64,000 nt of DNA, from positions 264,699-328,698 of the forward strand of contig NW_023365723.1 in assembly GCF_000003815.2 (NCBI RefSeq). The letters are read 5' to 3'. The stretch is from Branchiostoma floridae (taxonomy: Eukaryota > Chordata > Leptocardii > Amphioxiformes > Branchiostomatidae). How positions within the stretch are numbered: the stretch's first letter is position 1; every line of letters begins with the position of its first letter. Made by a program: the position numbers and the translations under genes. The notes beneath the pieces are model-generated. The model was not told the DNA's origin. It made no database searches and saw nothing but the letters and a program-made list of their open reading frames with translations. Below, piece after piece: positions 6,355 through 58,251 of the stretch.

Positions 6355-6617
6355 ACACAGTTCCGTTCATGTTGGCGGGGAAGCCACAACTGAGACCCAA
6401 TCAAGAAAGCCAGATTTTTCCCGTTGGTGTCGGCAGGCAAGTCACAACGTCTGCCCGATACAGAATTTGAAGACGGACTTTGTGTCGGTGAGGATCAGGG
6501 AAACTACAACTTCTACCCGATAAACGAGCTTGAGAGACAAACTCTTCCATTCGCGTCTGCGGGGGAGCTACAAACTTCCACCTGATAAAGTTGAGACAAA
6601 CAGTCATTCCATTTGTA
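6355..6617. repeat. degenerate ~75-bp tandem repeat
   Basis: About four poorly conserved units share the pattern ttcc.tt.gtgt.ggcggg..agctacaac..c..cccgataa..gagttgagacaaac. They run straight into the regular 114-bp array and may be an older, decayed stage of it. Confidence 0.5.
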
Positions 6618-7375
6618 GCCAACACGCACCTTCAATATGACAGGTCATCAGCTTGCGGGGGGACAAAACTTCCCTCCCGTCTCAAGCTCCGTTAAAACTC
6701 ATGCAGTACACATACAGATGCGCGGCCTGTCGCCAACACGCACCTTCAATATGACAGGTCATCAGCTTGCGGGGGGACAAAACTTCCCTCCCGTCTCAAG
6801 CTCCGTTAAAACTCATGCAGTACACATACAGATGCGCGGCCTGTCGCCAACACGCACCTTCAATATGACAGGTCATCAGCTTGCGGGGGGACAAAACTTC
6901 CCTCCCGTCTCAAGCTCCGTTAAAACTCATGCAGTACACATACAGATGCGCGGCCTGTAGCCAACACGCACCTTCAATATGACAGGTCATCAGCTTGCGG
7001 GGGGACAAAACTTCCCTCCCGTCTCAAGCTCCGTTAAAACTCATGCAGTACACATACAGATGCGCGGCCTGTAGCCAACACGCACCTTCAATATGACAGG
7101 TCATCAGCTTGCGGGGGGACAAAACTTCCCTCCCGTCTCAAGCTCCGTTAAAACTCATGCAGGACACATACAGATGCGCGGCCTGTAGCCAACACGCACC
7201 TTCAATATGACAGGTCATCCGCTTGCGGGGGGACAAAACTTCCCTCCCGTCTCAAGCTCCGTTAAAACTCATGCAGTACACATACAGATGCGCGGCCTGT
7301 AGCCAACACGCACCTTCAATATGACAGGTCATCAGCTTGCGGGGGGACAAAACTTCCCTCCCGTCTCAAGCTCCG
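6618..7375. repeat. 114-bp minisatellite, 6.6 copies
   Basis: Units start at 6618, 6732, 6846, 6960, 7074, 7188 and 7302; the last stops after 74 bp. They are nearly identical, with rare single-base changes such as gtagcc/gtcgcc, aggacac/agtacac and atccgc/atcagc. The 114-bp length is a multiple of three, so a 107-codon frame is open across the first three units until a c-to-a change makes TAG. I judge that frame an artefact of the repeat. Confidence 0.95.
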
Positions 7376-9271
7376 GTGTATCCATGCATCATCGAAAAAT
7401 CACAAGTGCCACCTCTGGGTATGCCACGTATTAAAAACTTACCTGCGGGTACACAGTTTAGTTTCACTCGTCTCCGCCTCAAAGTATAAACATGAACGTC
7501 AGTCGAGGAATTGACCGACTCAGAATAAAGACACCTACAGGTAAAACAGTTTCCGGCGATCAATCAGTCTTCTTTATTTTTAATTTTTCCCATACATCAT
7601 TTCCCATCTGAGCGCAAATCATGGAAATATAAACCGACCCCACACTAGCACAAATGAGTCCCCCCTAGCATAGCAACAGTGATGGGAACCCAGTGGAGCA
7701 ACAATGCACTCTTTAACGTGAACCAGATGTTTCCACATTCTGGCCCATGCCTCATGGCTAAAAATAAGTAGAATATTTGCACCAGATTACCACACAAAAC
7801 AACAAACACAAATCTGAGAAATCTATGTTAACTATTAATACTGTTTGGGGCACTCAGGCCAACAACAGGCGAAAGCGGGACACAATACTGATGGGACAGT
7901 TGCAACAGTTATGATCTCCCATCCCAAAAAAGGCTGACCAAAACATTGATACTGTGGAGACTTACGCCTTGCACATGCAATCCACTACATGTGATCAGGG
8001 ATCAGCAGGAAATGGTAAGTTATCGTACCTGGCAAAACCCAAATGGAATGTCTCATCAAAGTCCAACTGTCCTAAGATACCCGAAGGATGTATGGAGAAA
8101 AGGTGGCCATCGGTGTCCTCATGTTGACCCCATAGCAGTGGTGAACAAAAACACTGCAAAATTCTCCAAAAGCTGCACAACGTCGTTCCTCTCATAGCAA
8201 CATGCATCCTTGTTTCTCTACCCTTCCACTTACACCATTAAACTAAGGTGGCATCCGCGCGTAAAACTTTCCAAAAGGAAAGAGCAGTCATGGTGTTACT
8301 GTTCTGGTCCAAGGCGTGCCCCAGAATGACATGTGGGGGGTGTTATCTCTCAACCCATCCCACAATGCTATAGTGGACTCGGGACAGTCTTACAAGCAAC
8401 AGTGCGCCTTCAAGTCTAGAGGATTTGATCAATCAGAATATACGATGATCGACTGAGAAAAGATCATAGACTGGTGCAGATAGAAGAACAACTGTCGATT
8501 GCACACGACCTGATCTATAGTTTGGCCGTCTTCGTATTATCGTCATTGTTGCTATGCATAATTTTTACTAGCAATGTTTCAGTAGATCTGGTCTTCAAGC
8601 AGTAACAGAACTCACATTATCTAGCAGATTCCCATTATCGCATTACAGGACAACCGACTTTAACTCTGTTCATAACCAGTCAGTTTTAGTTTAGAAGTAG
8701 CTAACATTCATTTAGTTATCAAGGTTCGTAGATTAGTTAGGTTAGCAGTTATATAAGATTCGTGAGCAGAAAGGCTCACATCAAGCTCTCAAGCACTTGG
8801 AAGATGCCCGTTCTCCACAAATGTATTTATCTAGTTAGCTTACCGACTCGTTCCGCCGACTAGGTCACTCGACTCCTATTATACTTAAGTTTGCTTACCT
8901 CGTTACCTTGTGTTACCTAACTCGTTCACCTGTTAACGCATGCTTTCGACGTTATTCCTACAAGCGCAGTTCTCGATTGTAATGTTAAAGCATCCTCTTG
9001 ACGCCTGGGTCACGCCCATGGCCTTTGACATCCAGCTATGTACAGACTCTGGACTAGCATTAAAGATGTCATGCACCAAGCCGTCTGTTCGTGATAACGA
9101 GTTGGTGTGATTATGATTTGTATTCTCAGTGCCAGATTTATGGGTATGTCAGTTGTATACATGTAGGCATGGAGTCATTTTCTTTACCATTGAAATTCAA
9201 TTACAATTTTAGACCGACCTGGCAGCAAAAAAAGTGAGTATTATATTTAGAAAACCTGGTGAGAGAGAAAG

Positions 9272-9560
9272 ATGCGAAGATGCCTAAATAAGAATCGCCT
9301 GAGTTTCACCTTCGATCATTCATCAACAGCCATTCACAACTGGAAGGCACACATCTTGCGTGCGGTCAATCAGGAGCTTGGAAAACAATCAGCATTGCAG
9401 CAACTAGACAATCAAACGGACCTTATCATCACTGATTGGGCCATGAAGTTCCTTCCGATGAAATACAGACCACATGCCTGGGTTTTTCGGTAAATGTGGG
9501 TGGAGCTGACACGTGGCGTCAGCCATCACCAAAGGAAACTTTGCGTGCAACTGATAAGGC
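9272..9560 (+). pseudogene. 'DWAMKFLP'-family transposon protein fragment, copy 1
   Basis: The ORF from ATG 9272 reads WKAHILRAVNQ, then LIITDWAMKFLPMKYR near its end. A frameshift follows, after which FFGKCGWS continues the family pattern. I remember DWAMKFLPxKYR...WFGKRGxSWH from multi-copy uncharacterised lancelet, coral and mollusc proteins that behave like transposon proteins; I have no firm family name. The fragment is truncated and joined directly to RAG1-like sequence at about 9580. The same joint occurs in three other copies. Confidence 0.5.
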
Positions 9561-9588
9561 ACAAGATAGTTGTACGTTGATCAAGGTC

Positions 9589-10172
9589 CAGCCATGAATT
9601 TGTTGCGATAATGAAAGAGGTTGTCAAGGTTCTTAGGTCTGCCCTTTTATCCAGAATGCGTGGCCTTTCATATGAGCGGTCCTTTTTAACTTCATTCCAG
9701 AGAAAGTATCCAGATGGTCAAGCGATTGTACTCAAGTTGGCAAAACAACGGAAGACAGCAAACTCAAAGCTGTAAATGACCATAGATGGATACAATTCGG
9801 TGGCTTGGGAGATAAAAGAGCTCAATTCCCACGTGTCTGCTCACTTTCGGGAGGCAACCGACCCCTCTGGGCAAACCTCCTCGTGCCTGGACCCAAATAC
9901 AGTCGAAGTCGGACAACATACAAAACGTATCAGAGCGTCAACAATAGTCGTAGTTATATGAAGTAAACATATCGTTGTGTCAGTTATTTTCCCTCTTAAT
10001 ACAAATTACCTGCCGGGGAAGATATTGCAGTCGTTTTGAAACCATGTATTATCGCTACAAACTTGCAATTGGTAAAATGCAGTGATGGACACTATGAAGT
10101 GTGTCTTGACTACGGCAGACGGAAATGATGCGCTCTTCGATGGCTCTTTCGAGAGTCCGAAACGTGCACACT
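9589..10172 (+). pseudogene. RAG1L: RAG1-like fragment, N-terminal/early catalytic part, copy 1
   Basis: Successive segments line up with my memory of vertebrate RAG1. 'SHEFVAIM' resembles DELEAIM. 'YPDGQAIVLKLA...' and then 'IDGYNSVAWE' resemble the stretch ending LLPGYHHFEW. 'EDIAVVLKPC' precedes 'VKCSDGHYEV', which resembles NGPFTVVVKESCDGMGDV; RAG1 has its first catalytic aspartate (D600) in that last stretch. The frame is broken, including a stop after CLDYGRRK. In RAG1 this core acts as a DDE recombinase; this copy cannot make protein. It is followed directly by the zinc-binding part at 10189, making 9589-10792 the most complete RAG1-like stretch in the window. Confidence 0.68.
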
Positions 10173-10188
10173 AAGCTTCCTAAGTAGT

Positions 10189-10792
10189 ATGATAGATGAA
10201 AAGTGGGATAGGGCCCAGGGGGGTCTTGTTGGGGCAGGCTCCAGATTTTTGTGTACCCAATGTGAAGCAATGAGGGATGAGGCACTCCATAAAGTAGGTT
10301 CATACAGTATTTCAAAGACCTTGTCGGACATGAAGAAGATAAGGCTAAATCCAAACAAGCTATCAGATGCTGCTCTCAGTCAGCAAGGTCATGGCGTAAA
10401 ATGTGAACCCTTGCTTACCACAGAGCCATGGGAACGAGGGATAAATGCTAGCTATGCAGATATCAACATTGGCACCTTTTTCAAAACAATAATCATTAGG
10501 GACGTAGTCTGGGTTACAAGCTGGGAGAAAACAGCTGATGTGAAAGATCTATTAGATGATGCGGAGAGGAGATTTGGTGCACATCTGCATGAAGGCTACT
10601 GTTGGCCTCAATCTGACATAAATGTTTTAAAATGTAGAGCAGCTGGTAGCACTTGTGAATGATCCAACAAGAAGTGCACTCATAGATGTGTTGGGTCAGT
10701 TTTGCTAACTGGGAAGGGTGTACAGGGCCAAGTGGCCGTTGATTGAAATGCCAGAGGAAGTAAAAAAATATAATCATGCAGCAGTGGAAATG
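10189..10792 (+). pseudogene. RAG1L: RAG1-like fragment, zinc-binding part, copy 1 (most complete)
   Basis: A 157-codon frame begins 'IDEKWDRAQGGLVGAGSRF' and runs into 'LCTQCEAMRDEA'. I align this to RAG1 YDEKLVREVEGLEASGSVY then ICTLCDATRLEA, so both zinc-binding cysteines (C727 and C730 in mouse) are kept. Further on, 'YADINIGTFFKTI' matches HCDIGNAAEFYKI. A frameshift near 10620 leads to 'VEQLVALV', then 'SALIDVLGQF', a TAA, then 'RAKWPLIEMPEEV' up to 'HAAVEM'. That follows RAG1 VDAVCELI, ALRELMDLY, RSSCPAKECPESL. A gtaact donor follows VEM. The D708 region and everything after VEM, including the catalytic glutamate, are absent. Confidence 0.72.
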
Positions 10793-10973
10793 GTAACTAA
10801 CATTCGCATCCATTTTCCATGTGTATACTGTACCATAAAATAATCGATCATATCAGACATACCAATCGAAACCCTTGTTCTCTACATACATTTTTAACGT
10901 TGTTAAGGCTGTAGAAATTGTTGAAGTATTAAGCTACTAGTAAATTGAGATATCAAACCCTTTCTTATCTCAG

Positions 10974-11060
10974 GATGAGGAGTGGCAATACCTGAAAATT
11001 GTTGGAAACAACAATCTGGAACCAGTCATTGGAAGGATGGCAGGATGCTTTTATGTTTAT
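10974..11060 (+). pseudogene. orphan exon with a twin at 18555
   Basis: An acceptor (ttatctcag) is followed by an open stretch beginning DEEWQYLKIVGNNNLEPVIG. The exon at 18555 begins similarly (NQWEYMKVICSNNLKPL), also right after an acceptor. Function unknown; both look like relics of one multi-copy gene. Confidence 0.4.
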
Positions 11061-11136
11061 CCTTGATACCTGTATTTCTCAAGAAACATATACGAAAGTA
11101 GAGTTTCAATTGAATTGAATTGGTTGTGGTGAACCG

Positions 11137-11340
11137 ATGCCCTGTCACAAGGCGGGCCAATACGGCAAGCACTGCCAGGGGATTTCTACAGATCCGCCGG
11201 CAGACAGGCAGCCCATCGAGCTCGAGGACCCCAACCCCAAGTCTGCGATGGTCGTCCTGGAACAACGCTGGAGAAGGCCACCGCGGAAGCAGAGCTTAAA
11301 AAAGAGGTGGCAGTTCTGGAGAAGAGATTAGGGGCTCTGA
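11137..11340 (+). pseudogene. unknown exon, coiled-coil segment
   Basis: One frame (about 11262-11350) reads LEKATAEAELKKEVAVLEKR, a strong heptad pattern. A second lysine-rich open stretch follows an acceptor at about 11410 (ENDSVSEEAKKNKKRTAFLA). It could be the ORF1 end of a non-LTR element, since a retroposon-like 3' end follows, but no RNA-binding motif is visible. Confidence 0.3.
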
Positions 11341-11479
11341 AGACAAGCGAATTGGACAGGAACATGTTTCTGCTCATTTATCAATAACATTGATTTTTTT
11401 CCTTACTAGGAAAATGACAGCGTCTCGGAGGAGGCAAAGAAAAACAAGAAAAGGACAGCATTCCTGGCTGTAAAGAACA

Positions 11480-11752
11480 CGTCGGGGGGGTCGAGGCTTA
11501 CGTTGTGGTCAACGCTTTTGTATATAATCAATTCCGTGTATAATTGTCACCGTATTATATATTCATGTCTACTGACTTTTGATGTCTAATGTTTATTGTT
11601 TGATTTTGGTTTCGCATTGTTTTCTATTATCATTTCAGGTTTGGGAGGACAACTTGTAAAGGTGTTGATACACCTGTTTTGTCCTCCCTTCCACTTGTTT
11701 TTGCATGTGGTAAATTCAAATAAAGAAATAAAGAAATAAAGAACGGTAAGCC
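11480..11752 (+). mobile_element. 3' end of a non-LTR retroposon
   Basis: An AT-rich 3' UTR-like stretch contains a stem-loop: gggaggacaa (11643-11652) pairs with ttgtcctccc (11679-11688), with an inner stem aggtgt/acacct (11660-11665 / 11670-11675). Downstream is a short (aaataaag)n tail at about 11717-11742. A 3' hairpin followed by a simple-repeat tail is the usual recognition end of CR1/L2-like elements. The coding part is missing. Confidence 0.6.
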
Positions 11753-12421
11753 AGTGACCGTAACTGATTCAGTCGTTGACGGTTTCATCGCCCTGATAGG
11801 AGCACTCTACTGCAAGTGCCAGTTTTTAATGAATCATGCAGTTGCAGTCACCTGTGTGAGAGGGTGTCCCTACAACCTGCTACAATGAACACAAAGACTG
11901 GTCATCAATATTTCGTACGTTTGATCGAGTGTATGACGATGCATATTGACAACATTTTATTTACCTCGTGCGGACGGAAAATAAACAAACTCATGTGAAC
12001 CCACATTAAGGCGTTCAGTTTTCTTCAAACAGGTTGCCACCTGGACAGGAACGATGATGGTTTGGGAAATGGCTAACATCATCTCCCAGTAAAACTTTTG
12101 TCCTCCCTGTACCGCTTTCCAGGACTGAGCAGGAACTTTGTTTTCCTTTTCGCGGTTTATAAATATGGTTTGGGAGAGGGCTCCGTTGCTACATATAGAC
12201 AAATCCCATGTACCTTGTACACAATACATATTGAAACATTCATATCTGTATATCATGGGGAAATCTTGTACTAAGTTCATGATGGTGCATTCATCACTAT
12301 ACATTGGGTATCCTCAAGACGAAGTTGCAGACCTGCTTTCCAGACTCAACGCTTTTACTGTACGGGGGCAGCAGCGAGAATGCAAATCCCAACTCCACTA
12401 GCAGGGAGAATGCTTACTCTA
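11753..12421. other. no gene seen
   Basis: Short ORFs on both strands overlap each other. None has splice context plus a recognisable motif. Confidence 0.5.
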
Positions 12422-14665
12422 CACTACAAAAAATCTTTTTTCTTATTTTTCTTCTTTTCTTGTTTTTTCTTACGGAGAGAAAAAGTTTCTTGTATAAAGA
12501 AAGGTTGAGAAAAGCAAGAAACCTCCTGTAAAACCTTTGTATGCTAATTCCTACACAAAGATTTCTATTCTTGTTTTTTCTTAACTGAAGAAAATATTTC
12601 TAATATAATGATCACTGAGCAAGAATGTTCAAGAAATTAAAGTAGAACTTTCTTTTCCAGTCTTCACACAAGATTTGCTTCTTGTTTGTTCAAATGGAAA
12701 ATATTGCAGAATCTATCCTGAAGATTATTATTCTTGCCTTATACCAGTTTTTTCTTTAGGATTTGTTTTTACCAGAATAAGATTCTTGAACTTTCTTGTT
12801 GTCTCAATGTAGAATGTCCGAGAAACGTAATTCTTGGTTTTCATGTTATAACTTAAGGAAATGCAATAGTTTTTTAATCAGTTTCTTGAGCAAATACTGC
12901 AAATAAATCAAGAAATTGCAAAACAACTTATAACTAGCATGAAATTCTTAAATGTTCTTGAATGTTATCTTTATCCATAAAGTTTAAGAAAAGACGTTTC
13001 TTGTTTTTCTTGATGATATGTAAGGAGATATTTTTTCAGAACTCACTTGACTGAATACTAATAAGAAAAACAAGAAATTATGAAACAAGCTATGACTAGC
13101 AGAATATTCTTGAATGTTATAATCATGTTTCTTATCAAGAAAATCTAAGAAAGATGATTCTCGTTTTTCTTAATAATATTTAATGAAAACAATAAAAGTA
13201 TAATTTTCTCCTTATATTATTGACAACTACGTTTAAACAATTGGAGCATCAAGATATGAAAAATAATTTTGAGCTAGCATTGATTTTCTTTTGTTTTCCC
13301 AATACGAGAGTTAAGAAATATTTTCTTGCAGTAAGATTCTTCATTTTGCTAAGGATCATGGGAAATTACTCCCATCATCCTTTGCTGCGATTTTGAACTG
13401 GGAGTCACAGTTGCAAGTCACAGTGCTCCAGCTCTGTAGTTTTTTTGCCTCAAATGTCCTTTAGTTCTTACATTAACAGGGAACAAATATGATGTGTTTC
13501 GTAAAGACGATTTTCTGCATCATGTGGGACCTTGCATACAACGTGGCTAGCTTTTTTAGAGTTTCAAAATGCTACCGAAGCCAAGGCCAAGCCGGATGCC
13601 CCCCTCCCCCATGCAGGTATGTTAGCCATCGTACTTGGAATACGATTTCCAAAGCTACTATTTCTGTAGATGTTTATCATAAAACCAAACAGTAATTACA
13701 GAATATGTAAGTAAAGTGCATGAAATTCTGCAAAATACAAAGAATTGACTATAATATTTGTAAGGAAGGAAATGTATAGAGATGTTGGCCTTTACAGGGG
13801 GAGGGGGGCGATATAAGAATTGATGATCATTCATGGTCTTTGTGTGTTGTTCTAGGCTCAGAAACCTACTGGTACAAGGAGGATGTTCCCATGATCCCAT
13901 CTCAACTTTGGAAAAGCCCTTAACAAGGAGAATTCTTCATTATAAATACAGCAACGGCAACATTGTAGCTCTAATGGTTTCAGATAAGGACAATTAGTTA
14001 TAGTTGGCTGCACGGTACTGTATCAGGAAAAAATGTCAATAAGCAAGCGTAAGTTACAAAATGGTTGATTTTTGCAATCTTTGGTAAGGAATGAGTAATC
14101 GAGGAAAACACCACAAAACTTGTATGAATCATATTGATGATAATAAATATGATTGCCATCATGTATTGACATAAATGTCAACATTGAGTTGTTTGTACTC
14201 TTTATATAAGAATGTTAATCTTAGTGTAAGAAACTGATTCTAGGTTTGTAGTTGCAAGAAATTTAGTCTTGAAGACAGAATGGCATTGCAGGCACAAAAA
14301 AGCTCAATCTTCATGCAAGAAAGCGATTCTTGTACTACATATAAGAAATTTACTCTTGCAGACAGAAAGTAATTCCTCATACAAGAACCTCAATCTTCAT
14401 GCAAGATTAAGAATTCATTCTTGATGTAAGAAATTCATTCTTCAGCATGCATGTGTTAGAAATAGATTCTGAACACAAGAAAACTATTCTAGAAGTTTTG
14501 GTCCATTAGCTATAAGAAAAAAATTCTTAGCACAAGAAAAATATGGGTTTCTTGAATTTTCTCAAAACAGGGATTCTTGAATACAGAATAATATTCTTGC
14601 TGAAAGATTAGTTTTCTTTGTTCAAGAAAAAACAAGAAAGATAAGAAAATTCATTTTTTGTAGTG
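12422..14665. mobile_element. 2.24-kb non-coding TIR element with TA flanks
   Basis: It begins CACTACAAAAAAT and ends ATTTTTTGTAGTG. The inverted repeat continues imperfectly for ~50 bp as a cttatttttcttgttttttctt-type sequence. TA lies on both sides (12420-12421, 14666-14667), as expected for a Tc1/mariner-type TA target. The CACTA-like tips would also suit EnSpm, but no matching 3-bp duplication is present. The interior is AT-rich and packed with ttcttg/caagaa on both strands. It has no plausible transposase. Near 13354-13384 it carries the imperfect palindrome ggatcatggga...tcccatcatcc. Confidence 0.78.
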
Positions 14666-25475: not shown

Positions 25476-26525
25476 AATTATACATTACAGTGAAAATGTA
25501 ATTGAAATGTTTATTCATTGAATAAACAACCACAAACATGTTTCACTGTATATACACTCAGAACATGCACATTCTGGGGGGGGGGGGGGGGGGGGAATAA
25601 TTTCAGATTTATTTTCAGTAATTTGTACAAAGGTTTGAAGAATGTGAAAGAAAAGCAATCTAATGCCAGATGTAGATGGAACCACTGTGAGGAATGTTTT
25701 CCCTCAATTTCTGACCTTAATGAACATTTATCAACTTGCCATGTAGAGTTTTGATACTGATGTTGCACCATGCAAACGTTCATATTCCTGTCTGTGGGAC
25801 AACTGTAGTCATAAGAGTCTGAAACTTTTGAAATCTCACATAAGTGAGCATACAGGTTTAGAGACTGACAAGTTCATATTGATTTTGTTAGCCGACCAGG
25901 TCAAAGCTTTAGTTACACCAAAGCGGCAATTGCGCTGGCACCCGCTTGTAATCAGATGGTGCCTGCGACATTACCATTCAACATCTAAGTATGATGCTTT
26001 TTCTAAATCTGTTTTTTTTAGACTCCCAAGTGTTAGGGAACAGGCCCAAATCATTGATTTTAGCTCTGCCTTTTTGCTGCACCGACCGGTGTTATTCATG
26101 TCAGGGAACAGGGAACATGCCCACCATGTGTCCCAGATGGGGGAAGGTCTCCAGCGGAAAGTGAACAAACAAACCCAGACGTGCCGAAGAGTGGTCGTCT
26201 CCCTGAGATCTGCCGGGAGTCTTCCTGGAGAATTTTCCGATCCATCTCTATCTTTCGCCGATGATATGGCTTTTCCCGATTCTATCGTTATAGCTGGGCA
26301 CTCTTTCGTGTCGCGGCTCGAGTCGTATATTCGCCACACGCCTCTGACTCAGTGTTTCAAAACCCGAAAGGTCAGCCCTGATTTTGATCTACAAAGTCAC
26401 CCAGTAGTACATTACTTTGGTTCGCCCGGATGCACTATCCCCAGGTTTAGTGCTGAAATTCTGCCTAGGCTGCCGTTGGTGGCCCCGACTATTGTGTATG
26501 TTGAGCTGGGCCACAACGACCTGTA
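25476..26525 (+). pseudogene. composite: C2H2 fingers + P-element-like segment + SGNH-hydrolase-like segment, copy A
   Basis: Two zinc-finger-like units come first (CRWNHCEECFPSISDLNEHL, then CLWDNCSH...KSHISEH; a stop after HVEF separates them). Next comes RWHPLVIRWCLRHYHSTSK, then LRLPSVRE-type residues as in P-element/THAP9-like transposases before the RNase H fold. After a linker, SIVIAGHSFVSRLESY and VVHYFGSPGC lead to YVELGHNDL. The GHS and GHND motifs resemble SGNH-hydrolase blocks I and III. A single 232-codon frame (25828-26526) spans the second finger to the SGNH end and stops exactly after GHNDL. Confidence 0.55.
25576..25595. repeat. poly-G tract (20 G)
   Basis: Uninterrupted G20 in the composite. 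The equivalent position has gggaggggggggg at 31.92 kb and only gggggg at 59.15 kb, so this copy is expanded. It lies just upstream of an acceptor (aatttcag). Confidence 0.95.
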
Positions 26526-26679: not shown

Positions 26680-27020
26680 ATGCGGAGATGCCTAAATAAT
26701 GTTGGTGGCAGCAGCGTTAACTTGATAACCCCTTTCCATCTCTTCAACAGCAAGCACAAGAATCGCCGGAGTTTCACCTTCGACATTCATCAACAGTCAT
26801 TCACAACTGGAAGGCACACGTGTTGCGTGCGGTCAATCAGGAGCTTGGAAAACAATCAGCATTGCAGCAACTAGACAATCAAACGGACCTTATCATCACT
26901 GATTGGGCCATGAAGTTCCTTCCGATGAAATACAGACCACATGCCTGGGTTTTTCGGTAAATGTGGGTGGAGCTGACACGTGGCGTCAGCCATCACCAAA
27001 GGAAACTTTGCGTGCAACTG
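26680..27020 (+). pseudogene. 'DWAMKFLP'-family fragment, copy 2
   Basis: Same segment as at 9272, but with a ~65-bp stretch absent from copies 1 and 3 (gttggtggcagcagcgttaac...). The frames are broken; ITDWAMKFLPMKYR is still readable at about 26890-26935. It follows the SGNH-like segment directly. Confidence 0.5.
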
Positions 27021-27056
27021 ATAAGGCACAAGATAGTTGTACGTTGATCAAGGTCC

Positions 27057-27640
27057 AGCCATGAATTTGTTGCGATAATTAAAGAGGTTGTCAAGGTTCT
27101 TAGGTCTGCCCTTTTATCCAGAATGCGTGGCCTTTCATATGAGCGGTCCTTTTTAACTTCATTCCAGAGAAAGTATCCAGATGGTCAAGCGATTGTACTC
27201 AAGTTGGCAAAACAACGGAAGACAGCAAACTCAAAGCTGCAAACGAACATAGATGGATACAATGCGGTGGCTTGGGAGACAAAACAGCTCAATTCCCCAG
27301 TGTCTGCTCAGTTTCGGGAGGCAACCGACCCCTCTGGGCAAACCTACTCGTGCCTGGACCCAAAAACAGTCGAAGTCGGACAACATACAAAACGTATCAG
27401 AGCGTCAACAGTAGTCGTAGTTTTATCAAGTAAATATATCGTTGTGGCAGTTATTTTCCCTCTTAATACAAATTACCTGCCGAGGAAGATATTGCAGTCG
27501 TTTTGAAACCATGTATTATCGCTACAAACTTGCACGTGGTAAAATGCAGTGATGGACAGTATGAGGTGTGTCTTGACTACGGCAGACGGAAATGATGCGC
27601 TCTTCGATGGCTCTTTCGAGAGTCCGAAACGTGCACACTA
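27057..27640 (+). pseudogene. RAG1L: RAG1-like fragment, N-terminal/early catalytic part, copy 2
   Basis: Nearly identical to 51976-52559. An open stretch of 127 codons from 27123 covers YPDGQAIVLKLAKQRKTANS and IDGYNAVAWET. The next block, EDIAVVLKPC...VVKCSDGQYEV, lies in another frame. It continues at 27681 into the truncated Harbinger exon, not into the zinc-binding part. Confidence 0.65.
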
Positions 27641-27680
27641 AGTAAGCCTTCATTTAAACGTTGCATCAGTGCTAATTCAT

Positions 27681-28282
27681 CGAACAGGCTTGAACCAGGC
27701 GTTCTTCGTCCTCCCCGCGCTGGCGATAGTGGAAGCCGGGCGCGTTGATCGTGTTGTAGGGGAACTCCCGAGAAGCAGCCACTGGTGGGAGGTCATTGCT
27801 CTTGGAACATTTGACGACCTTCAATGGTACAAACGGTTCCGAATGAGGAGAAACACATTTATGATCGTACTGAATCACCTGGAGAATGCGCTACTTCACA
27901 CCAACACCCGTATGCGTTCCGCGATCACAGCACAGAAGCGCCTCGCCATTGGTATCTATTGGCTGGCTTCAGGAGACCTTATGAGAACTGTGGCTGACCT
28001 GTTCGGTGTAAGCGAAGCTTCTGTAAGCAACATTATCCATGAGGTGTGTACTGCAATCGTGGACATCCTGGGACCACTGTACCTGACCTTCCCCAGAAGA
28101 GAAAAACTCAGAGAAATCATACAAGGGTATGAAGAGGTGTGGGGCTTTCCGCAGTGCGGAGGTGCTGTGGATGGGTCGCACATCCAGGTTAAGGCCCCAT
28201 CATCGAAGAGCCGGACAGACTACTACAACAGGAAGGGCTTTTACTCCATGATTTTGCAAGGCACTGTGTATTACCTTTACAG
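27681..28282 (+). pseudogene. PIF/Harbinger (HARBI1-like) transposase exon, 5'-truncated
   Basis: Matches 52927-53524 almost exactly but lacks the element's 5' end and first ~48 codons. Relative to the other copy, 52602-52926 is deleted. It keeps RLAIGIYWLASGDLMRTVAD (helix-turn-helix-like region) and GAVDGSHIQVKAP, which holds the first catalytic Asp of the DDE_Tnp_4 fold. It ends at a donor (cttacag|gtacac-type), and the rest of the transposase is absent. Confidence 0.82.
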
Positions 28283-28340
28283 GTACACTTTCTATAATTT
28301 CTAGCAAATGTGCTCTTTATACCTGCCCCAATATTGACAG

Positions 28341-28587
28341 GAGTGAGGGATGAGGCACTCCGTAAAGTAGGTTCATACAATATTCAAAGGACCTTGTCGG
28401 ACATAAAGACGACAGCTGTCTTTGTGAGGCTAAATGCAAACAAGCTATCAGATGCTGCTCTCAGTCAGCAAGCTCATGGCGTAAAATGTGAACCCTTGCT
28501 TACCACAGAGCCATGGGACGAGGGATAGATGCTACATGGGCAACTTTTTCAAAACATTAATCATTAGGGAAGTAGTCCAGGTTACAC
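28341..28587 (+). pseudogene. RAG1L: RAG1-like fragment, zinc-binding part, copy 2
   Basis: Begins right after an acceptor (attgacag) with VRDEALRKVGSY and runs to LLTTEPWDEG then TAG. Against 10260-10520 it lacks the CxxC cysteines, has lost one base at the EPW(E)RG point and lacks the DINIG segment. It fades into cattagggaagtagtccaggttac. Confidence 0.62.
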
Positions 28588-31805: not shown

Positions 31806-31886
31806 GTAAGGAACAAGAACTTCTTATTCTTTCAGCAGCAGATAAGCGAGCAAAATAGATAATAACATAACGCCACGCGAGTAGAT

Positions 31887-32866
31887 TTCACTCTATGTAC
31901 ACTCAAAACATGCACATTCTGGGAGGGGGGGGTGATAATTTCAGATTTATTTTCAGTAATTTGTACAAAGGTTTGAAGAATGTGAAAGAAAAGCAATCTA
32001 ATGCCAGATGTAGATGGAACCACTGTGAGGAAGGTTTTCCCCCAATTTCTGACCTTAATGAACATTTATCAACTTGCCATGTAGAAACTTTTGATACTGA
32101 TGTTGCACCATGCAAACGTTCATATTCCTGTCTGTGGGACAACTGTAGTCATAAGAGTCTGAAACTTTTGAAATCTCACATAAGTGAGCATACAGGTTTA
32201 GAGACTGACAAGTTCATATTGATTTTGTTAGCCGACCAGGTCAAAGCTTTAGTTACACCAAAGCGGCAATTGCGCTGGCATCCACTTGTAATCAGATGGT
32301 GCCTGCGACATTACCATTCAACATCTAAGTATGATGCTTTTTCTAAATCTGTTTTTTTGAGACTCCCAAGTGTTAGGGAACAGGCCCAAATCATTGATTT
32401 TAGCTCTGCCTTTTTGCTGCACCGACCGATGTCATTCATGTCAGGGAACATGCCCACCATGTGTCCCAGATGGGGGAAGGTCTCCAGCGGAAAGTGAACA
32501 GACAAATCCAGAAGTGCGGAAGAGTGGTTGTCTCCCTGAGATCTGCCGGAAATTTTCTGGTGAGTCTTCCTGGAGAATTTTCCGATCCATCTCTATCTTT
32601 CGCCGATGATATGGCTTCTCCCGATTCTATCGTTATAGCTGGGCACTCTTTCGTGTCGCGGCTCGAGTCGTATATTCGCCGCACGCTTCGACTCAGCGTT
32701 TCAAAATCCGAAAGGTCAGCCTTGGTTTTGATCTACAAAGTCACCCTGTAGTACATTACTTTGGTTCGCCCGGATGCACTTTCCCCAGGTTTAGGGCTGA
32801 AATTCTAGGCTGCCGTTGGTGAGCCCCGTCTATTGTGTATGTTGAGCTGGGCCACAACGACCTGTA
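31887..32866 (+). pseudogene. composite: C2H2 + P-element-like + SGNH-like, copy B
   Basis: Homologous to 25545-26525. A 200-codon frame (31895-32497) covers both zinc fingers (CRWNHCEEGFPPISDLNEHL and CLWDNCSH...) and RWHPLVIRWCLRHYHSTSK. A frameshift follows, and the SGNH-like part is read from 32461 (SIVIAGHSFVSRLESYIRR). Small deletions then spoil it (near 32690 and 32805), yet GHNDL is still present at the end. Confidence 0.55.
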
Positions 32867-39928: not shown

Positions 39929-40481
39929 TAATAATTGTAACATAGAATCTGACAAACTGATTCCTGGAAACTATGCTCGTGAGTTCTTTGCTGAACAGAA
40001 TGAAGAACATGCCCTGTATCATCTTGCACCTGACATTCGAGTTAGTATAACATCCATTCAAGCCAAGTTCATATTGCTACGGCGAGTTTTCAGGGCAATT
40101 CTCCCTATGGAAACTTGTGCAGAAGATGTTACTCAGTTAAAAAAAAAACTGCAGTTGAAATGGGTCCGCTTTTGATGTCACAGTTTCCATATTGCAGAAT
40201 TATAAATTATATGCACAAAGTGATAGAACATGTGCAAGAAGTGGGCAGATCAGCACTGTTGAATGACGAGGAGCCGGAGGAGGCACAGGTGCGGCCAGAG
40301 GTGCGGGGGGACCCAGTGGTGCGGGAGGACGAGGAGGCGGAGCTAGAGGCGCCCGGCGTCGATGGACAGCCAGTAAGTTCTAATTTTTCAAATTATTCCT
40401 AACCAATGTAACGCAAGTTCACCTTTATTTATTCATTCATTCATTCAGGACGAGGAAGACCCGCGTCGACTATGCATGTGA
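39929..40481 (+). pseudogene. RAG1L: RAG1-like fragment, distal zinc-histidine part, with foreign tail
   Basis: Exon 39929-40372 follows an acceptor (aattcag). It reads DKLIPGNYAREFF (RAG1: MRMNGNFARKLM), then LAPDIRV and ILLRRVFRAILPMETCAEDV (RAG1: KMKPVWRSSCPAKECPESL). A frameshift in an A10 run (40139-40148) follows, then MGPLLMSQFPYCRIINYMHK and VIEHVQEVG (RAG1: [28 protein letters not shown]). Both zinc-binding histidines (H937 and H942 in mouse) are kept. The sequence then leaves RAG1 before the catalytic Glu (E962) and enters an acidic tail (NDEEPEEAQVRPEV). That tail splices in phase at 40373/40449 to DEEDPRRLCM, stop. In another frame the tail is Gly/Arg-rich like exon 4 at 17.3 kb. 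Confidence 0.66.
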
Positions 40482-40706
40482 GAGGAGGGGGGTGATGCGT
40501 GGAGGGCGCCGCTACTCTACGTACGTGGCACATATGCGCGTTTCTAATTATGTCGCTTAGATTTTAGTTGACTTTTAGTTAGTAGGTAACAATTTTATTT
40601 CTCTGCAATTCCTTCTTTTGTCGATGTACTTTTGACACATTATTAGTCTAATGACTTGTTTTGAAGGAGGCCCTATATTAATGTTTTATACTGTTGATTT
40701 TTGTTG

Positions 40707-41376
40707 GCCACCAGCAGTAGGGAGGTGGCGGCCACCAGCAGCAGGGGGGTGTTCGCCACCAGCAGCAGGGAGGTGTTCGCCGCCAGCAGCAGGGAGATGT
40801 TTGCCACCAGCAGCAGGGAGGTGTTCGCCACCAGCAGCAGGGGGGTGTTCGCCACCAGCAGCAGGGAGGTGTTCGCCACCAGCAGCAGGGAGGTGTTCAC
40901 CGCCAGCAGTGGGAAGGTGTTCACCGCCAGCAGTGGGGGGGTGTTCGCCACCAGCAGCAGGGAGGTGTTCGCCTCCAGCAGTAGGGAGGTGTTCGCCACC
41001 AGCAGCAGGGAGGTGTTCGCCACCAGCAGCAGGGAGGTGTTCACCGCCAGCAGTGGGAAGGTGTTCACCGCCAGCAGTGGGGGGGTGTTCGCCACCAGCA
41101 ACAGGGAGGTGTTCGCCGCCAGCAGCAGGGAGGTGTTCGCCGCCAGCAGCAGGGAGGTGTTCACCGCCAGCAGCAGGGGGGTGTTCGCCACCAGCAGCAG
41201 AGAGGTGTTCGCCGCCAGCAGCAGGGAGGTGTTCGCCGCCAGCAGTAGGGGGGTGTTCGCCGCCAGCAGCAGGGGGGTGTTCGCCTCCAGCAGCAGGGAG
41301 GTGTTCGCCGCCAGCAGCAGGTGGGTGTTCGCCACCAGCAGCAGGGAGGTGTTCGCCACCAGCAGCAGGGAGGTGT
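40707..41376. repeat. 24-bp minisatellite, about 28 copies
   Basis: The consensus is ccagcagcagggaggtgttcgcca, with variants agcagt, tcaccg, gcctcc and gggggg. The pattern tcaccgccagcagtgggaag recurs at 40897 and 41041, exactly 144 bp (six units) apart. The unit is divisible by three, so frames on both strands stay open (275, 262 and 238 codons). I regard these as repeat artefacts. Confidence 0.95.
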
Positions 41377-51657: not shown

Positions 51658-51930
51658 ATGCGAAGATGCCTAAATAAGAATCGCCTGAGTTTTACCTTCG
51701 ATCATTCATCAACAGCCATTCACAACTGGAAGGCATACATGTTACGTGCGGTCAATCAGGAGCTTGGAAAACAATCAGCATTGCAGCAACTAGACAATCA
51801 AACGGACCTTATCATCACTGATTGGGCCACGAAGTTCCTTCCGATGAAATACAGACCACATGCCTGGGTTTTTCGGTAAATGTGGGTGGAGCTGACACGT
51901 GGCGTCAGCCATCACCAAAGGAAACTTTGC
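51658..51930 (+). pseudogene. 'DWAMKFLP'-family fragment, copy 3
   Basis: The ORF from 51658 ends ITDWATKFLPMKYRPHAWVF. A +1 frame continues FFGKCGWS, then TGA where Trp is expected. It joins RAG1-like sequence at about 51950. Confidence 0.5.
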
Positions 51931-51975
51931 GTGCAACTGATAAGGCACAAGATAGTTGTACGTTGATCAAGGTCC

Positions 51976-52559
51976 AGCCATGAATTTGTTGCGATAATGA
52001 AAGAGGTTGTCAAGGTTCTTAGGTCTGCCCTTTTATCCAGAATGCGTGGCCTTTCATATGAGCGGTCCTTTTTAACTTCATTCCAGAGAAAGTATCCAGA
52101 TGGTCAAGCGATTGTACTCAAGTTGGCAAAACAACGGAAGACAGCAAACTCAAAGCTGCAAAGGACCATAGATGGATACAATGCGGTGGCTTGGGAGACA
52201 AAACAGCTCAATTCCCCAGTGTCTGCTCAGTTTCGGGAGGCAACCGACCCCTCTGGGCAAACCTACTCGTGCCTGGACCCAAAAACAGTTGAAATCGGAC
52301 AACATACAAAACGTATCAGAGCGTCAACAGTAGTCGTAGTTTTATCAAGTAAATATATCGTTGTGGCAGTTATTTTCCCTCTTAATACAAATTACCTGCC
52401 GAGGAAGATATTGCAGTCGTTTTGAAACCATGTATTATCGCTACAAACTTGCACGTGGTAAAATGCAGTGATGGACAGTATGAGGTGTGTCTTGACTACG
52501 GCAGACGGAAATGATGCGCTCTTCGATGGCTCTTTCGAGAGTCCGAAACGTGCACACTA
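51976..52559 (+). pseudogene. RAG1L: RAG1-like fragment, N-terminal/early catalytic part, copy 3
   Basis: The cleanest of the N-terminal copies. A 142-codon open stretch from ATG 51997 reads through KYPDGQAIVLKLAKQRKTAN and IDGYNAVAWETKQLN. The segment EEDIAVVLKPC...VVKCSDGQYEV (about 52398-52490) lies in another frame. The upstream frame has a TGA where the 61-kb copy has Trp (VRWPTSSHEF). It ends at cacacta|agtaagcc, then Harbinger sequence follows. Confidence 0.68.
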
Positions 52560-52651
52560 AGTAAGCCTTCATTTAAACGTTGCATCAGTGCTAATTCATC
52601 GAATTGAACGGATACTTGTCAGGTAAGAGGTGTCGACAACTCTCTGTGTAA

Positions 52652-53524
52652 GGCCCGATTTAGACACAAAACGCTTTAACCGACCTGCGTCGGTTAACCG
52701 TCACATGACGCTTAACCGACACGGTGACAGTTCCCTTTAGACACACCGGCGGAAGCGTTTTCGAATCCCGCGTATTTCAAAATGGCGGGGGAAGAGGCTC
52801 TCATCTTCGTGTTGCAGCAGTTCGTGTTTTTTATGCTCGCCACACGCGTTTTCATGCATGTGGCACGCCGCGTGCGCACACAGAGAAGAAAGAGAATGAG
52901 GCGCATGTTGAGGGATGCGCAAGACACAGGCTTGAACCAGGCGTTCTTCGTCCTCCCCGCGCTGGCGATAGTGGAAGCCGGGCGCGTTGATCGTGTTGTA
53001 GGGGAACTCCCGAGAAGCAGCCACTGGTGGGAGGTCATTGCTCTTGGAACATTTGACGACCTTCAATGGTACAAACGGTTCCGAATGAGGAGAAACACAT
53101 TTATGATCGTACTGAATCACCTGGAGAATGCGCTACTTCACACCAACACCCGTATGCGTTCCGCGATCACAGCACAGAAGCGCCTCGCCATTGGTATCTA
53201 TTGGCTGGCTTCAGGAGACCTCATGAGAACTGTGGCTAACCTGTTTGGTGTAAGCGAAGCTTCTGTAAGCAACATTATCCATGAGGTGTGTACTGCAATC
53301 GTGGACATCCTGGGACCACTGTACCTGACCTTCCCCCGAAGAGAAAAACTCAGAGAAATCATACAAGGGTATGAAGAGGTGTGGGGCTTTCCGCAGTGCC
53401 GAGGTGCTGTGGATGGGTCGCACATCCAGGTTAAGGCCCCATCATCGAAGAGCCGGACAGACTACTACAACAGGAAGGGCTTTTACTCCATGATTTTGCA
53501 AGGCACTGTGGATTACCTTTACAG
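52652..53524 (+). mobile_element. PIF/Harbinger element 5' end and HARBI1-like transposase first exon
   Basis: The terminus ggcccgatttagacacaaaa follows taa (52649-52651), the TWA target typical of PIF/Harbinger. A subterminal perfect inverted repeat ttaaccgac-ctgc-gtcggttaa lies at 52676-52697. The exon from ATG 52782 encodes about 247 residues. They include a basic N-terminus (RRVRTQRRKRMRRMLR), an HTH-like region (YWLASGDLMRTVANLFGVSE) and GAVDGSHIQVKAPSSKSRTD with the first catalytic Asp. It ends at a donor (ttacag|gtacac). The exons with the other two catalytic residues and the 3' terminus are missing. Confidence 0.82.
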
Positions 53525-53582
53525 GTACACTTTCTATAATTTCTAGCAAATGTGCTATCTATACCTGCCCCAATATTGACAG

Positions 53583-53828
53583 GAGTGAGGGATGAGGCAC
53601 TCCGTAAAGTAGGTTCATACAATACTCAAAGGACCTTGTCGGACATAAAGACGACAGCTGTCTTTGTGAGGCTAAATGCAAACAAGCTATCAGATGCTGC
53701 TCTCAGTCAGCAAGCTCATGGCGTAAAATGTGAACCCTTGCTTACCACAGAGCCATGGGACGAGGGATAGATGCTACATGGGCAACTTTTTCAAAACATA
53801 AATCATTAGGGAAGTAGTCCAGGTTACA
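53583..53828 (+). pseudogene. RAG1L: RAG1-like fragment, zinc-binding part, copy 3
   Basis: Same boundaries and damage as 28341-28587 (starts VRDEALRKVGSYNTQRT, ends TTEPWDEG, TAG). It follows the Harbinger exon after 58 bp, so the Harbinger element separates two RAG1-like parts. Confidence 0.62.
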
Positions 53829-57610: not shown

Positions 57611-58006
57611 TATGAAATTTGTCAACCCTGACTGTGAGGGAGCTGTGAGACAGAACCCAGTTTCCGTTGAAAGACAAAACCCAATTGCAGGTCCCGCTTA
57701 GAGACACTGAAAGGTACAGCCTAGTTGACTATGAAACAACTCACATACAAGCAACTCATAGTACTGTATTCCAACATGTTAGAAATTTTGAATACATTAT
57801 CTAATCTATCATTATTACATTCTGAAATGAAATGAAGTGTAATACTTTGGATTGCAGCTAATTTTGCTACCAAAACATGTTAAGATTGTTGTAGCCCTCT
57901 GACAATAGTTTCCTTTTATAATTCCAGCTGGGCAAGATAAACAGCAGGAATGGGATTCACATAACAGTAGCCACCCTAAGCAAGCGCTGTTTCAGGCTGG
58001 CAGAAG

Positions 58007-58251
58007 GAGTGAGGGATGAGGCACTCCGTAAAGTAGGTTCATACAATATTCAAAGGACCTTATCGGACATAAAGACGACAGCTGTCTTTGTGAGGCTAAA
58101 TGCAAACAAGCTATCAGATGCTGCTCTCAGTCAGCAAGCTCATGGCGTAAAATGTGAACCCTTGCTTACCACAGAGCCATGGGACGAGGGATAGATGCTA
58201 CATGGGCAACTTTTTCAAAACATAAATCATTAGGGAAGTAGTCCAGGTTAC
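58007..58251 (+). pseudogene. RAG1L: RAG1-like fragment, zinc-binding part, copy 4
   Basis: Same as 53583-53828. Upstream, the sequence differs (cgctgtttcaggctggcagaag), so the duplication boundary is exactly gagtgaggg, the former exon start. Frame reads VRDEALRKVGSYNIQRTLSD to TTEPWDEG, TAG. Confidence 0.62.

What the first reader, a model, noticed from the sequence alone, without database searches (positions are those of the whole stretch)
9589..10792. RAG1-like sequence in a contiguous 1.2-kb stretch
Several separate blocks follow vertebrate RAG1 in order: SHEFVAIM, IDGYNSVAWE, EDIAVVLKPC...CSDGHYEV, IDEKWDRAQGGL, LCTQCEAMRDEA (zinc CxxC kept), YADINIGTFFKTI, and VEQLVALV...MPEEV. Ordered, spaced similarity over several hundred residues is hard to explain by chance. 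RAG1-like transposons are known in lancelets (ProtoRAG; RAG1-core-like fragments). Here the D708 region and the catalytic Glu region are missing and the frame is broken, so it is a fossil.
Basis: partly seen in the sequence, partly recalled or inferred. Interest (0 to 1): 0.9.

Follow-up and report, generated by a model that had tools for sequence, protein, structure and literature searches.

The report
Dead lancelet RAG1-like transposon fragment
The right-hand half of the stretch is a real but dead piece of a RAG1-like jumping gene, related to the ancestor of our antibody-shuffling enzyme, in a lancelet, a kind of animal in which such relics are already on record; the left-hand half is a different repeat.

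Summary
Partly right. About 0.7 kb (10147-10862, +) is a true RAG1-like (RAG1L) fragment: the 177-aa frame 10129-10662 matches Branchiostoma belcheri ProtoRAG RAG1L (PDB 6b40) at E 2.7e-46, vertebrate RAG1 at E 7e-6, and Pfam RAG1 above its cut-off. The left half (9301-10097: SHEFVAIM, IDGYNSVAWE, EDIAVVLKPC/CSDGHYEV) has no RAG1 match and is another repeat unit that occurs elsewhere on the contig without RAG1L joined to it. The zinc CxxC and HxxxxH are kept. No TIR, TSD or RAG2L was found. The genome is a lancelet's. A census with BbRAG1L pieces gave 40 matches on four contigs, 26 of them on this one. The six longer copies compared on this contig differ by 7-11%; four of four that span them share deletions, one frameshifting. 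So a dead ProtoRAG-type copy was most likely multiplied by segmental duplication. More divergent RAG1L pieces are also present, one in the window (39942-40243). Lancelet RAG1L relics are known in print; this is one more, in an unusual cluster.

The parts
10147..10862 (+). RAG1L fragment of ProtoRAG (RAGL-B) type, from the SDSxKRAHYLSFLSSMIDEK block to the HKIIDHI zinc half
   Evidence: 6b40 E 2.7e-46; tblastn pieces 10171-10593 and 10589-10834; nucleotide similarity to other copies starts at 10150-10160 and ends at 10862
10129..10662 (+). stop-free frame of 177 aa carrying the best part of the fragment; the last 22 codons are out of the RAG1L frame
10252..10263 (+). zinc CxxC (ZnC2 position), CTQC
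   Evidence: aligned with CTLC of 6b40
10459..10461 (+). Asp codon at the position of mouse RAG1 D708 (numbering recalled)
   Evidence: alignment to 6b40 and to 3jbw
10834..10851 (+). HKIIDH, the two His of the ZnH2 position, behind a 10-bp frameshifting deletion
   Evidence: compare YLHKVIEHV of 6b40
10098..10146 (+). linker between the two units; 40 bp of it (10105-10144) recurs at C165:143891-143930; two further fused copies in the window keep it
9263..10097 (+). different repeat unit (reads WKAHILRAVNQ...ITDWAMKFLPMKYR, SHEFVAIM..., IDGYNSVAWE..., CSDGHYEV); unknown family, not RAG1; its copies were aligned from 9300
   Evidence: no RAG1 match; other copies without RAG1L join
26769..27642 (+). 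second copy of 9301-10175 (97%), RAG1L cut after its first 26-29 bp by a transposase-like insert
28331..28583 (+). RAG1L fragment resuming behind the insert
51686..52561 (+). third copy of 9300-10175 (97%)
53573..53825 (+). RAG1L fragment
57979..58249 (+). RAG1L fragment
39942..40243 (+). more divergent RAG1L fragment (AVEMGPLLMSQFPYCRIINYMHKVIEHVQE), sister of C165:349839-350309

Best explanation
10147-10862 is the middle of the RAG1L transposase gene of a ProtoRAG-type (RAGL-B) transposon that inserted in an ancestor of this lancelet, died, and was then copied many times as passenger DNA by local segmental duplication; in this copy the 5' part was lost and another repeat unit (9263-10097) was joined to it. 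When alive, the protein would have cut at CACTATG-type TIRs with RAG2L and moved by cut and paste (inferred from ProtoRAG); today the fragment makes no enzyme: it lacks two of three catalytic acids and its frame is broken. Shown: homology, truncation, shared lesions, copy cluster. Inferred: order of events and absence of any present function.
For: Ten RAG1L copies compared on the contig differ by 0.8-12.7%, the six longer ones by 6.8-10.9%, and all ten differ from the C11 copy by 23.2-26.4%. A 10-bp frameshifting deletion and a 21-bp deletion relative to C11 are shared by 4 of 4 copies that span them, this one included. Farther 5', where this copy does not reach, a deletion on the D600 side (37-47 bases left where C11 has 124) is shared by 7 of 7 copies compared and an in-frame TGA by 6 of 7 (the 202k copy lacks it). 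53% of C165:135000-398000 is covered by internal repeats of 400 bp or more. Differences of six contig copies from C11 fall 134:87:287 by codon position, as expected of an element that was once selected; those private to one of the six fall 20:15:33 of 68 (sums).
Against: The 177-aa frame is still open. Differences among the contig copies keep a third-position excess (pooled pairs 146:122:214, not independent; private ones 20:15:33), so some copies may have separated before death or been levelled by gene conversion. No TIR, TSD or RAG2L ties the fragment to a whole element. The shared deletions were judged against one outgroup copy (C11), itself broken and partly N.
Confidence: 0.88

Rival explanations
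1. The whole 9589-10792 stretch is one contiguous RAG1L gene relic.
For: Block order looks RAG1-like by eye; the two units lie side by side in three copies in the window.
Against: No RAG1 match for the left-half pieces; the left unit occurs elsewhere without RAG1L joined to it, and seven other RAG1L copies have their own, different 5' part with a DGMG-like block.
Confidence: 0.04
2. It is a domesticated short gene (like the published Florida lancelet fragment bfRAG1L, said to encode a working central domain), the open frame 10129-10662 being its product.
For: 177-aa open frame over the central part with one catalytic Asp and the CxxC; bfRAG1L is reported from B. floridae (passages of PMC7916673 and PMC7057966); a mild third-position excess.
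Against: Frameshift before VEQLVALV and a shared 10-bp deletion; no match in the genome covers the 386-residue query, the longest covering 1-278 with six stops (which ignores introns).
Confidence: 0.06
3. It is a relic of a Transib transposase without RAG2 partner.
For: RAG1 core and Transib are related (PMC7204232, passages).
Against: Best matches are RAG1L then vertebrate RAG1; no chain named Transib among 19 PDB matches at E<=10.
Confidence: 0.01
4. The copies on the contig are independent ProtoRAG insertions, not duplicates of one dead copy.
For: Mild third-position excess among private differences; the 202k copy lacks the shared TGA.
Against: Shared deletions and long shared flanks, e.g. 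167365-169473 with 397524-395413 at 97% and 273128-274873 with 315514-317259 at 98%; no TIRs.
Confidence: 0.1

Closest known systems
ProtoRAG of Branchiostoma belcheri (BbRAG1L, PDB 6b40), RAGL-B family
   Same: RAG1L sequence, about 55-56% identity over the matched part; ZnC2 and D708 position; lancelet host
   Different: only the middle of the core; D600 and E962 blocks and CTT* absent; RAG2L, TIRs and TSDs not found; frame broken
bfRAG1L, B. floridae RAG1-like fragment (Zhang et al. 2014, paper not held; seen only in passages citing it)
   Same: RAG1-like fragment of the core from a lancelet
   Different: reported to make an active protein; whether it is this copy, a sister or another locus could not be tested
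Vertebrate RAG1
   Same: significant match over 105 residues (E 7.2e-6)
   Different: much weaker than to ProtoRAG; no gene here

Membership tests
RAGL-B (ProtoRAG) transposon, intact element | RAG1L core homology | tested here: met
RAGL-B (ProtoRAG) transposon, intact element | three catalytic acids (mouse D600, D708, E962 positions; numbers recalled) | tested here: not met
   only the D708 position is kept; the D600 block seen in the C11 copy and the E962 block seen in the C165:349839 copy have no counterpart here
RAGL-B (ProtoRAG) transposon, intact element | TIRs CACTATG...GCCATCTTG (from PMC7481187, PMC8289069) | tested here: not met
   0 in window; 1 of 10 CACTATG sites in C165:135000-398000 has a TR5 within 2 mismatches, 104 kb away; CACTATG at 10090 is a private point variant, the 7 copies compared with it differing there
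RAGL-B (ProtoRAG) transposon, intact element | 5-bp target site duplication | tested here: inconclusive
   no element ends were found, so no TSD could be read
RAGL-B (ProtoRAG) transposon, intact element | convergent RAG2L gene | tested here: inconclusive
   Pfam RAG2 finds none in the genome, but rang in no control either; within 5.2 kb 3' of the C11 copy the convergent frames of 45 aa or more are one of 51 aa and three that read through a tandem repeat; not searched around the window copy with a RAG2L profile
RAGL-B RAG1L | C-terminal CTT* motif Cx2Cx3GHx4C | tested here: not met
   fragment ends before it; a motif of this shape, with a stop inside, is visible in locus L015 on C6 (CGVCGE*GHNCTTC)
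Relic of a RAGL-B RAG1L gene | significant, collinear RAG1L homology with disabling lesions | tested here: met

The most novel reading that the evidence does not exclude
Lancelets once carried at least one further RAGL lineage besides ProtoRAG. Its clearest remains are broken pieces on C6; more divergent pieces on C165 (window 39942-40243 among them) may be the same or a third lineage. Over one stretch of about 65 residues the C6 copies score higher against vertebrate RAG1 (35.7-39.8 bits) than ProtoRAG's own RAG1L does (26.6-33.7 bits), and they share a CPxxxCP motif with vertebrate RAG1 that BbRAG1L lacks. It could be a chordate relative of the lineage that gave rise to RAG.
Probability: 0.07. 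Interest if true: 0.65.

Novelty: new member of a known kind. Interest (0 to 1): 0.3.

Why it matters
RAG1L relics show where the ancestor of V(D)J recombinase lived. This one is expected in a lancelet, where about 53 mostly broken ProtoRAG copies are reported (PMC7481187, passage). What it adds: a cluster of relics that looks made by segmental duplication rather than transposition, a warning that such clusters can be miscounted as insertions, and more divergent RAG1L pieces worth placing in a tree.

Tried and rejected
RAG1 reading of 9581-10097: searched as pieces and as a less broken copy, no support. ProtoRAG TIRs: pattern in window, contig and genome; the five genome-wide matches are not near RAG1L matches. 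CACTATG at 10090 looked like a TIR end, but the seven other copies compared read AAGTATG or CAGTATG there. Inverted repeats in 8000-13000: three weak pairs (73-80%), none TIR-like. A nuclease motif DxN(D/E)xK, recalled for bfRAG1L, occurs once in the RAG1L regions scanned on the contig, with a stop inside it. RAG2: Pfam search silent, control silent. An intron at VEM|GTAAC (10793) was considered and dropped, since BbRAG1L continues colinearly. Structure prediction was not run; the match to a solved structure by sequence was enough. A tree of the divergent pieces was not tried: no sea urchin, hemichordate or RAGL-A sequences are on hand. My first reading that the divergent C6 and C165 pieces are one lineage did not hold on checking: 31 of 59 identical residues between them, against 32 of 66 and 29 of 54 to BbRAG1L, so I lowered the novel case from 0.10 to 0.07.

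Full report
What was checked. The window is C165:264699-328698 of a 513-Mb genome in 431 contigs.

The right half is RAG1L. The frame 10129-10662 matches the RAG1L chain of PDB 6b40 (ProtoRAG of B. belcheri; so named in PMC7204232 section 8) at E 2.7e-46 over residues 15-156 and 15 further RAG1 sequences at E 7.2e-6 to 2.9e-4; of 19 distinct PDB sequences at E<=10, 16 are RAG1L/RAG1 and three, at E 1.1-1.3, are unrelated. Pfam RAG1 is over its cut-off (27.1 bits, cut-off 25). In the genome-wide Pfam search this same place scores 24.4 bits, just under the cut-off. Against pieces of 6b40, tblastn gives 10171-10593 in one frame and 10589-10834 in another, so a frameshift lies near 10590.

Catalytic and zinc positions. 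The CxxC is CTQC (10252-10263). The Asp at 10459-10461 aligns with the Asp of THTDINMG in 6b40 and of HCDIGNA in 3jbw, which is mouse D708 by recalled numbering; so the D708 region is not missing. The D600 block reads KDEADGMGEVSV in the C11 copy and has no counterpart here. The E962 block (SGEGNEAGNKLF, read in C165:349839-350309) is absent too. The His pair HKIIDH (10834-10851) is kept behind a 10-bp deletion.

The left half is something else. Pieces 9581-9772 and 10000-10125, and a copy at 27048-27503 that is open over 152 aa, find no RAG1 chain at E<=10, and Pfam is silent. The unit 9572-10097 gives 23 matches on C165, C11 and C6; at four of them, C165:160k, 195k, 239k and 326k, the sequence after the end of homology was read and is unlike the window's. 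RAG1L copies at 170k, 202k, 224k, 249k, 257k, 333k and 394k carry a different 5' part. Three copies in the window share the junction (9301-10175 at about 97%), two of them with a DDE_Tnp_4-like frame (below Pfam's cut-off) between RAG1L pieces.

Census. With 386 residues of BbRAG1L as query the genome gives 40 matches at E<=0.01 on four contigs: 26 on C165, 6 on C6, 5 on C8, 3 on C11; the tool calls such counts lower bounds. The longest, on C11, covers 1-278 and has six stops; 11 short ones have none. By Pfam RAG1 there are 10 matches, 7 with stops inside and 3 partial ones without. No whole RAG1L gene was seen in these two searches, which ignore introns.

How it came about. The ten C165 copies compared differ from each other by 0.8-12.7% (the six longer ones 6.8-10.9%) and from C11 by 23.2-26.4%. 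Four of four copies that span them share a 10-bp deletion relative to C11, which shifts the frame, and a 21-bp deletion. On the 5' side seven of seven copies have 37-47 bases where C11 has 124, on the D600 side, and six of seven an in-frame TGA; the window copy does not extend there, so only the first two lesions include it. 53% of the 263 kb read (6.7 kb of it N) is internal repeat of 400 bp or more, with alignments up to 6.6 kb. A dead copy multiplied by segmental duplication is the simplest reading. Against it: the 68 differences private to one of six copies fall 20:15:33 by codon position, and pooled pairs 146:122:214, a mild third-position excess; against C11 the figures are 134:87:287.

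Transposon ends. The lancelet TIR is CACTATG, 27 or 31 bp, GCCATCTTG (passages of PMC7481187; PMC8289069 sections 5 and 7). None is in the window; of 10 CACTATG sites in C165:135000-398000 one has a TR5 within two mismatches, at 379407; five genome matches are not near RAG1L matches. Only exact patterns were sought in window and genome, so decayed ends could be missed. RAG2L was not found, but that search had no working control.

What is known. ProtoRAG is described from B. belcheri, with TIRs also from B. floridae and B. lanceolatum (PMC8289069, passages and section 5); about 53 lancelet copies, mostly not intact, are reported (PMC7481187, passage); a B. floridae fragment bfRAG1L is reported to encode a working central domain (PMC7916673 and PMC7057966, passages; the original paper is not held). 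Other papers seen: PMC7204232 (abstract, passages, sections 8 and 9), PMC4411706, PMC4284660 and PMC9816338 (passages), PMC9435367 (first of two parts of the text), PMC12373286 (main text searched for three RAG terms, none). I saw no description of this cluster in the listings of six paper searches or in the passages read; the library covers only open-licence papers.

Divergent pieces. C6 copies (L010, L015) and pieces on C165, among them window 39942-40243, are more divergent RAG1L. The two C6 copies agree with each other (46 of 59 residues), and so do window 39942-40243 and C165:349839 (67 of 87), but the two groups are no closer to each other (31 of 59) than to BbRAG1L (29 of 54 and 32 of 66), so one lineage is not shown. 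A 70-residue composite of the C6 copies scores 64.7 bits to 6b40 and 35.7-39.8 bits to vertebrate RAG1; the same stretch of BbRAG1L scores 26.6-33.7 bits to vertebrate RAG1. The C6 copies share CPxxxCP with vertebrate RAG1 (the C165 pieces read LPxETCAEDV), and L015 has a CTT*-like CGVCGE*GHNCTTC with a stop in it. Still the best match of the C6 copies is ProtoRAG, so a subfamily of RAGL-B that kept ancestral residues is likelier than a RAGL-A relic. RAGL-A is recalled from print beyond a passing mention in PMC7204232; no sequence of it was on hand.

Noticed in passing
39942-40243: Fragment of a more divergent RAG1L, sister of C165:349839-350309; other divergent copies on C6 (L010, L015) have a CPxxxCP motif shared with vertebrate RAG1.
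   Followed up: partly
C6:25.6-28.0 Mb and C165: All six C6 RAG1L matches and six of nine C6 matches of the left-half repeat lie in the last 2.5 Mb of contig C6; C165 may belong there.
   Followed up: no
27642-28301 and 52728-53543: Two similar frames with weak HTH_Tnp_4 and DDE_Tnp_4 matches (PIF/Harbinger-like by eye), sitting between RAG1L pieces.
   Followed up: partly
9263-10097 and its copies: Repeat unit reading ...ITDWAMKFLPMKYR...SHEFVAIMKEVVKVLR..., no Pfam family; C11:6158783-6158920 and 6159310-6159508 hold successive parts of it 390 bp apart, as if split by an intron.
   Followed up: partly
6614-7375: Tandem array of 6.7 copies of 114 bp at 99% matches.
   Followed up: no
40702-41376: Tandem array of 28 copies of 24 bp, open in several frames on both strands, GC-rich.
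   Followed up: no
31871-32494 and 25747-26523: Related C2H2-like frames (CRWNHCEEGFPPISDLNEHLSTCHV in the first) repeated along the contig; Zap1_zf1 match just under its cut-off in one.
   Followed up: no
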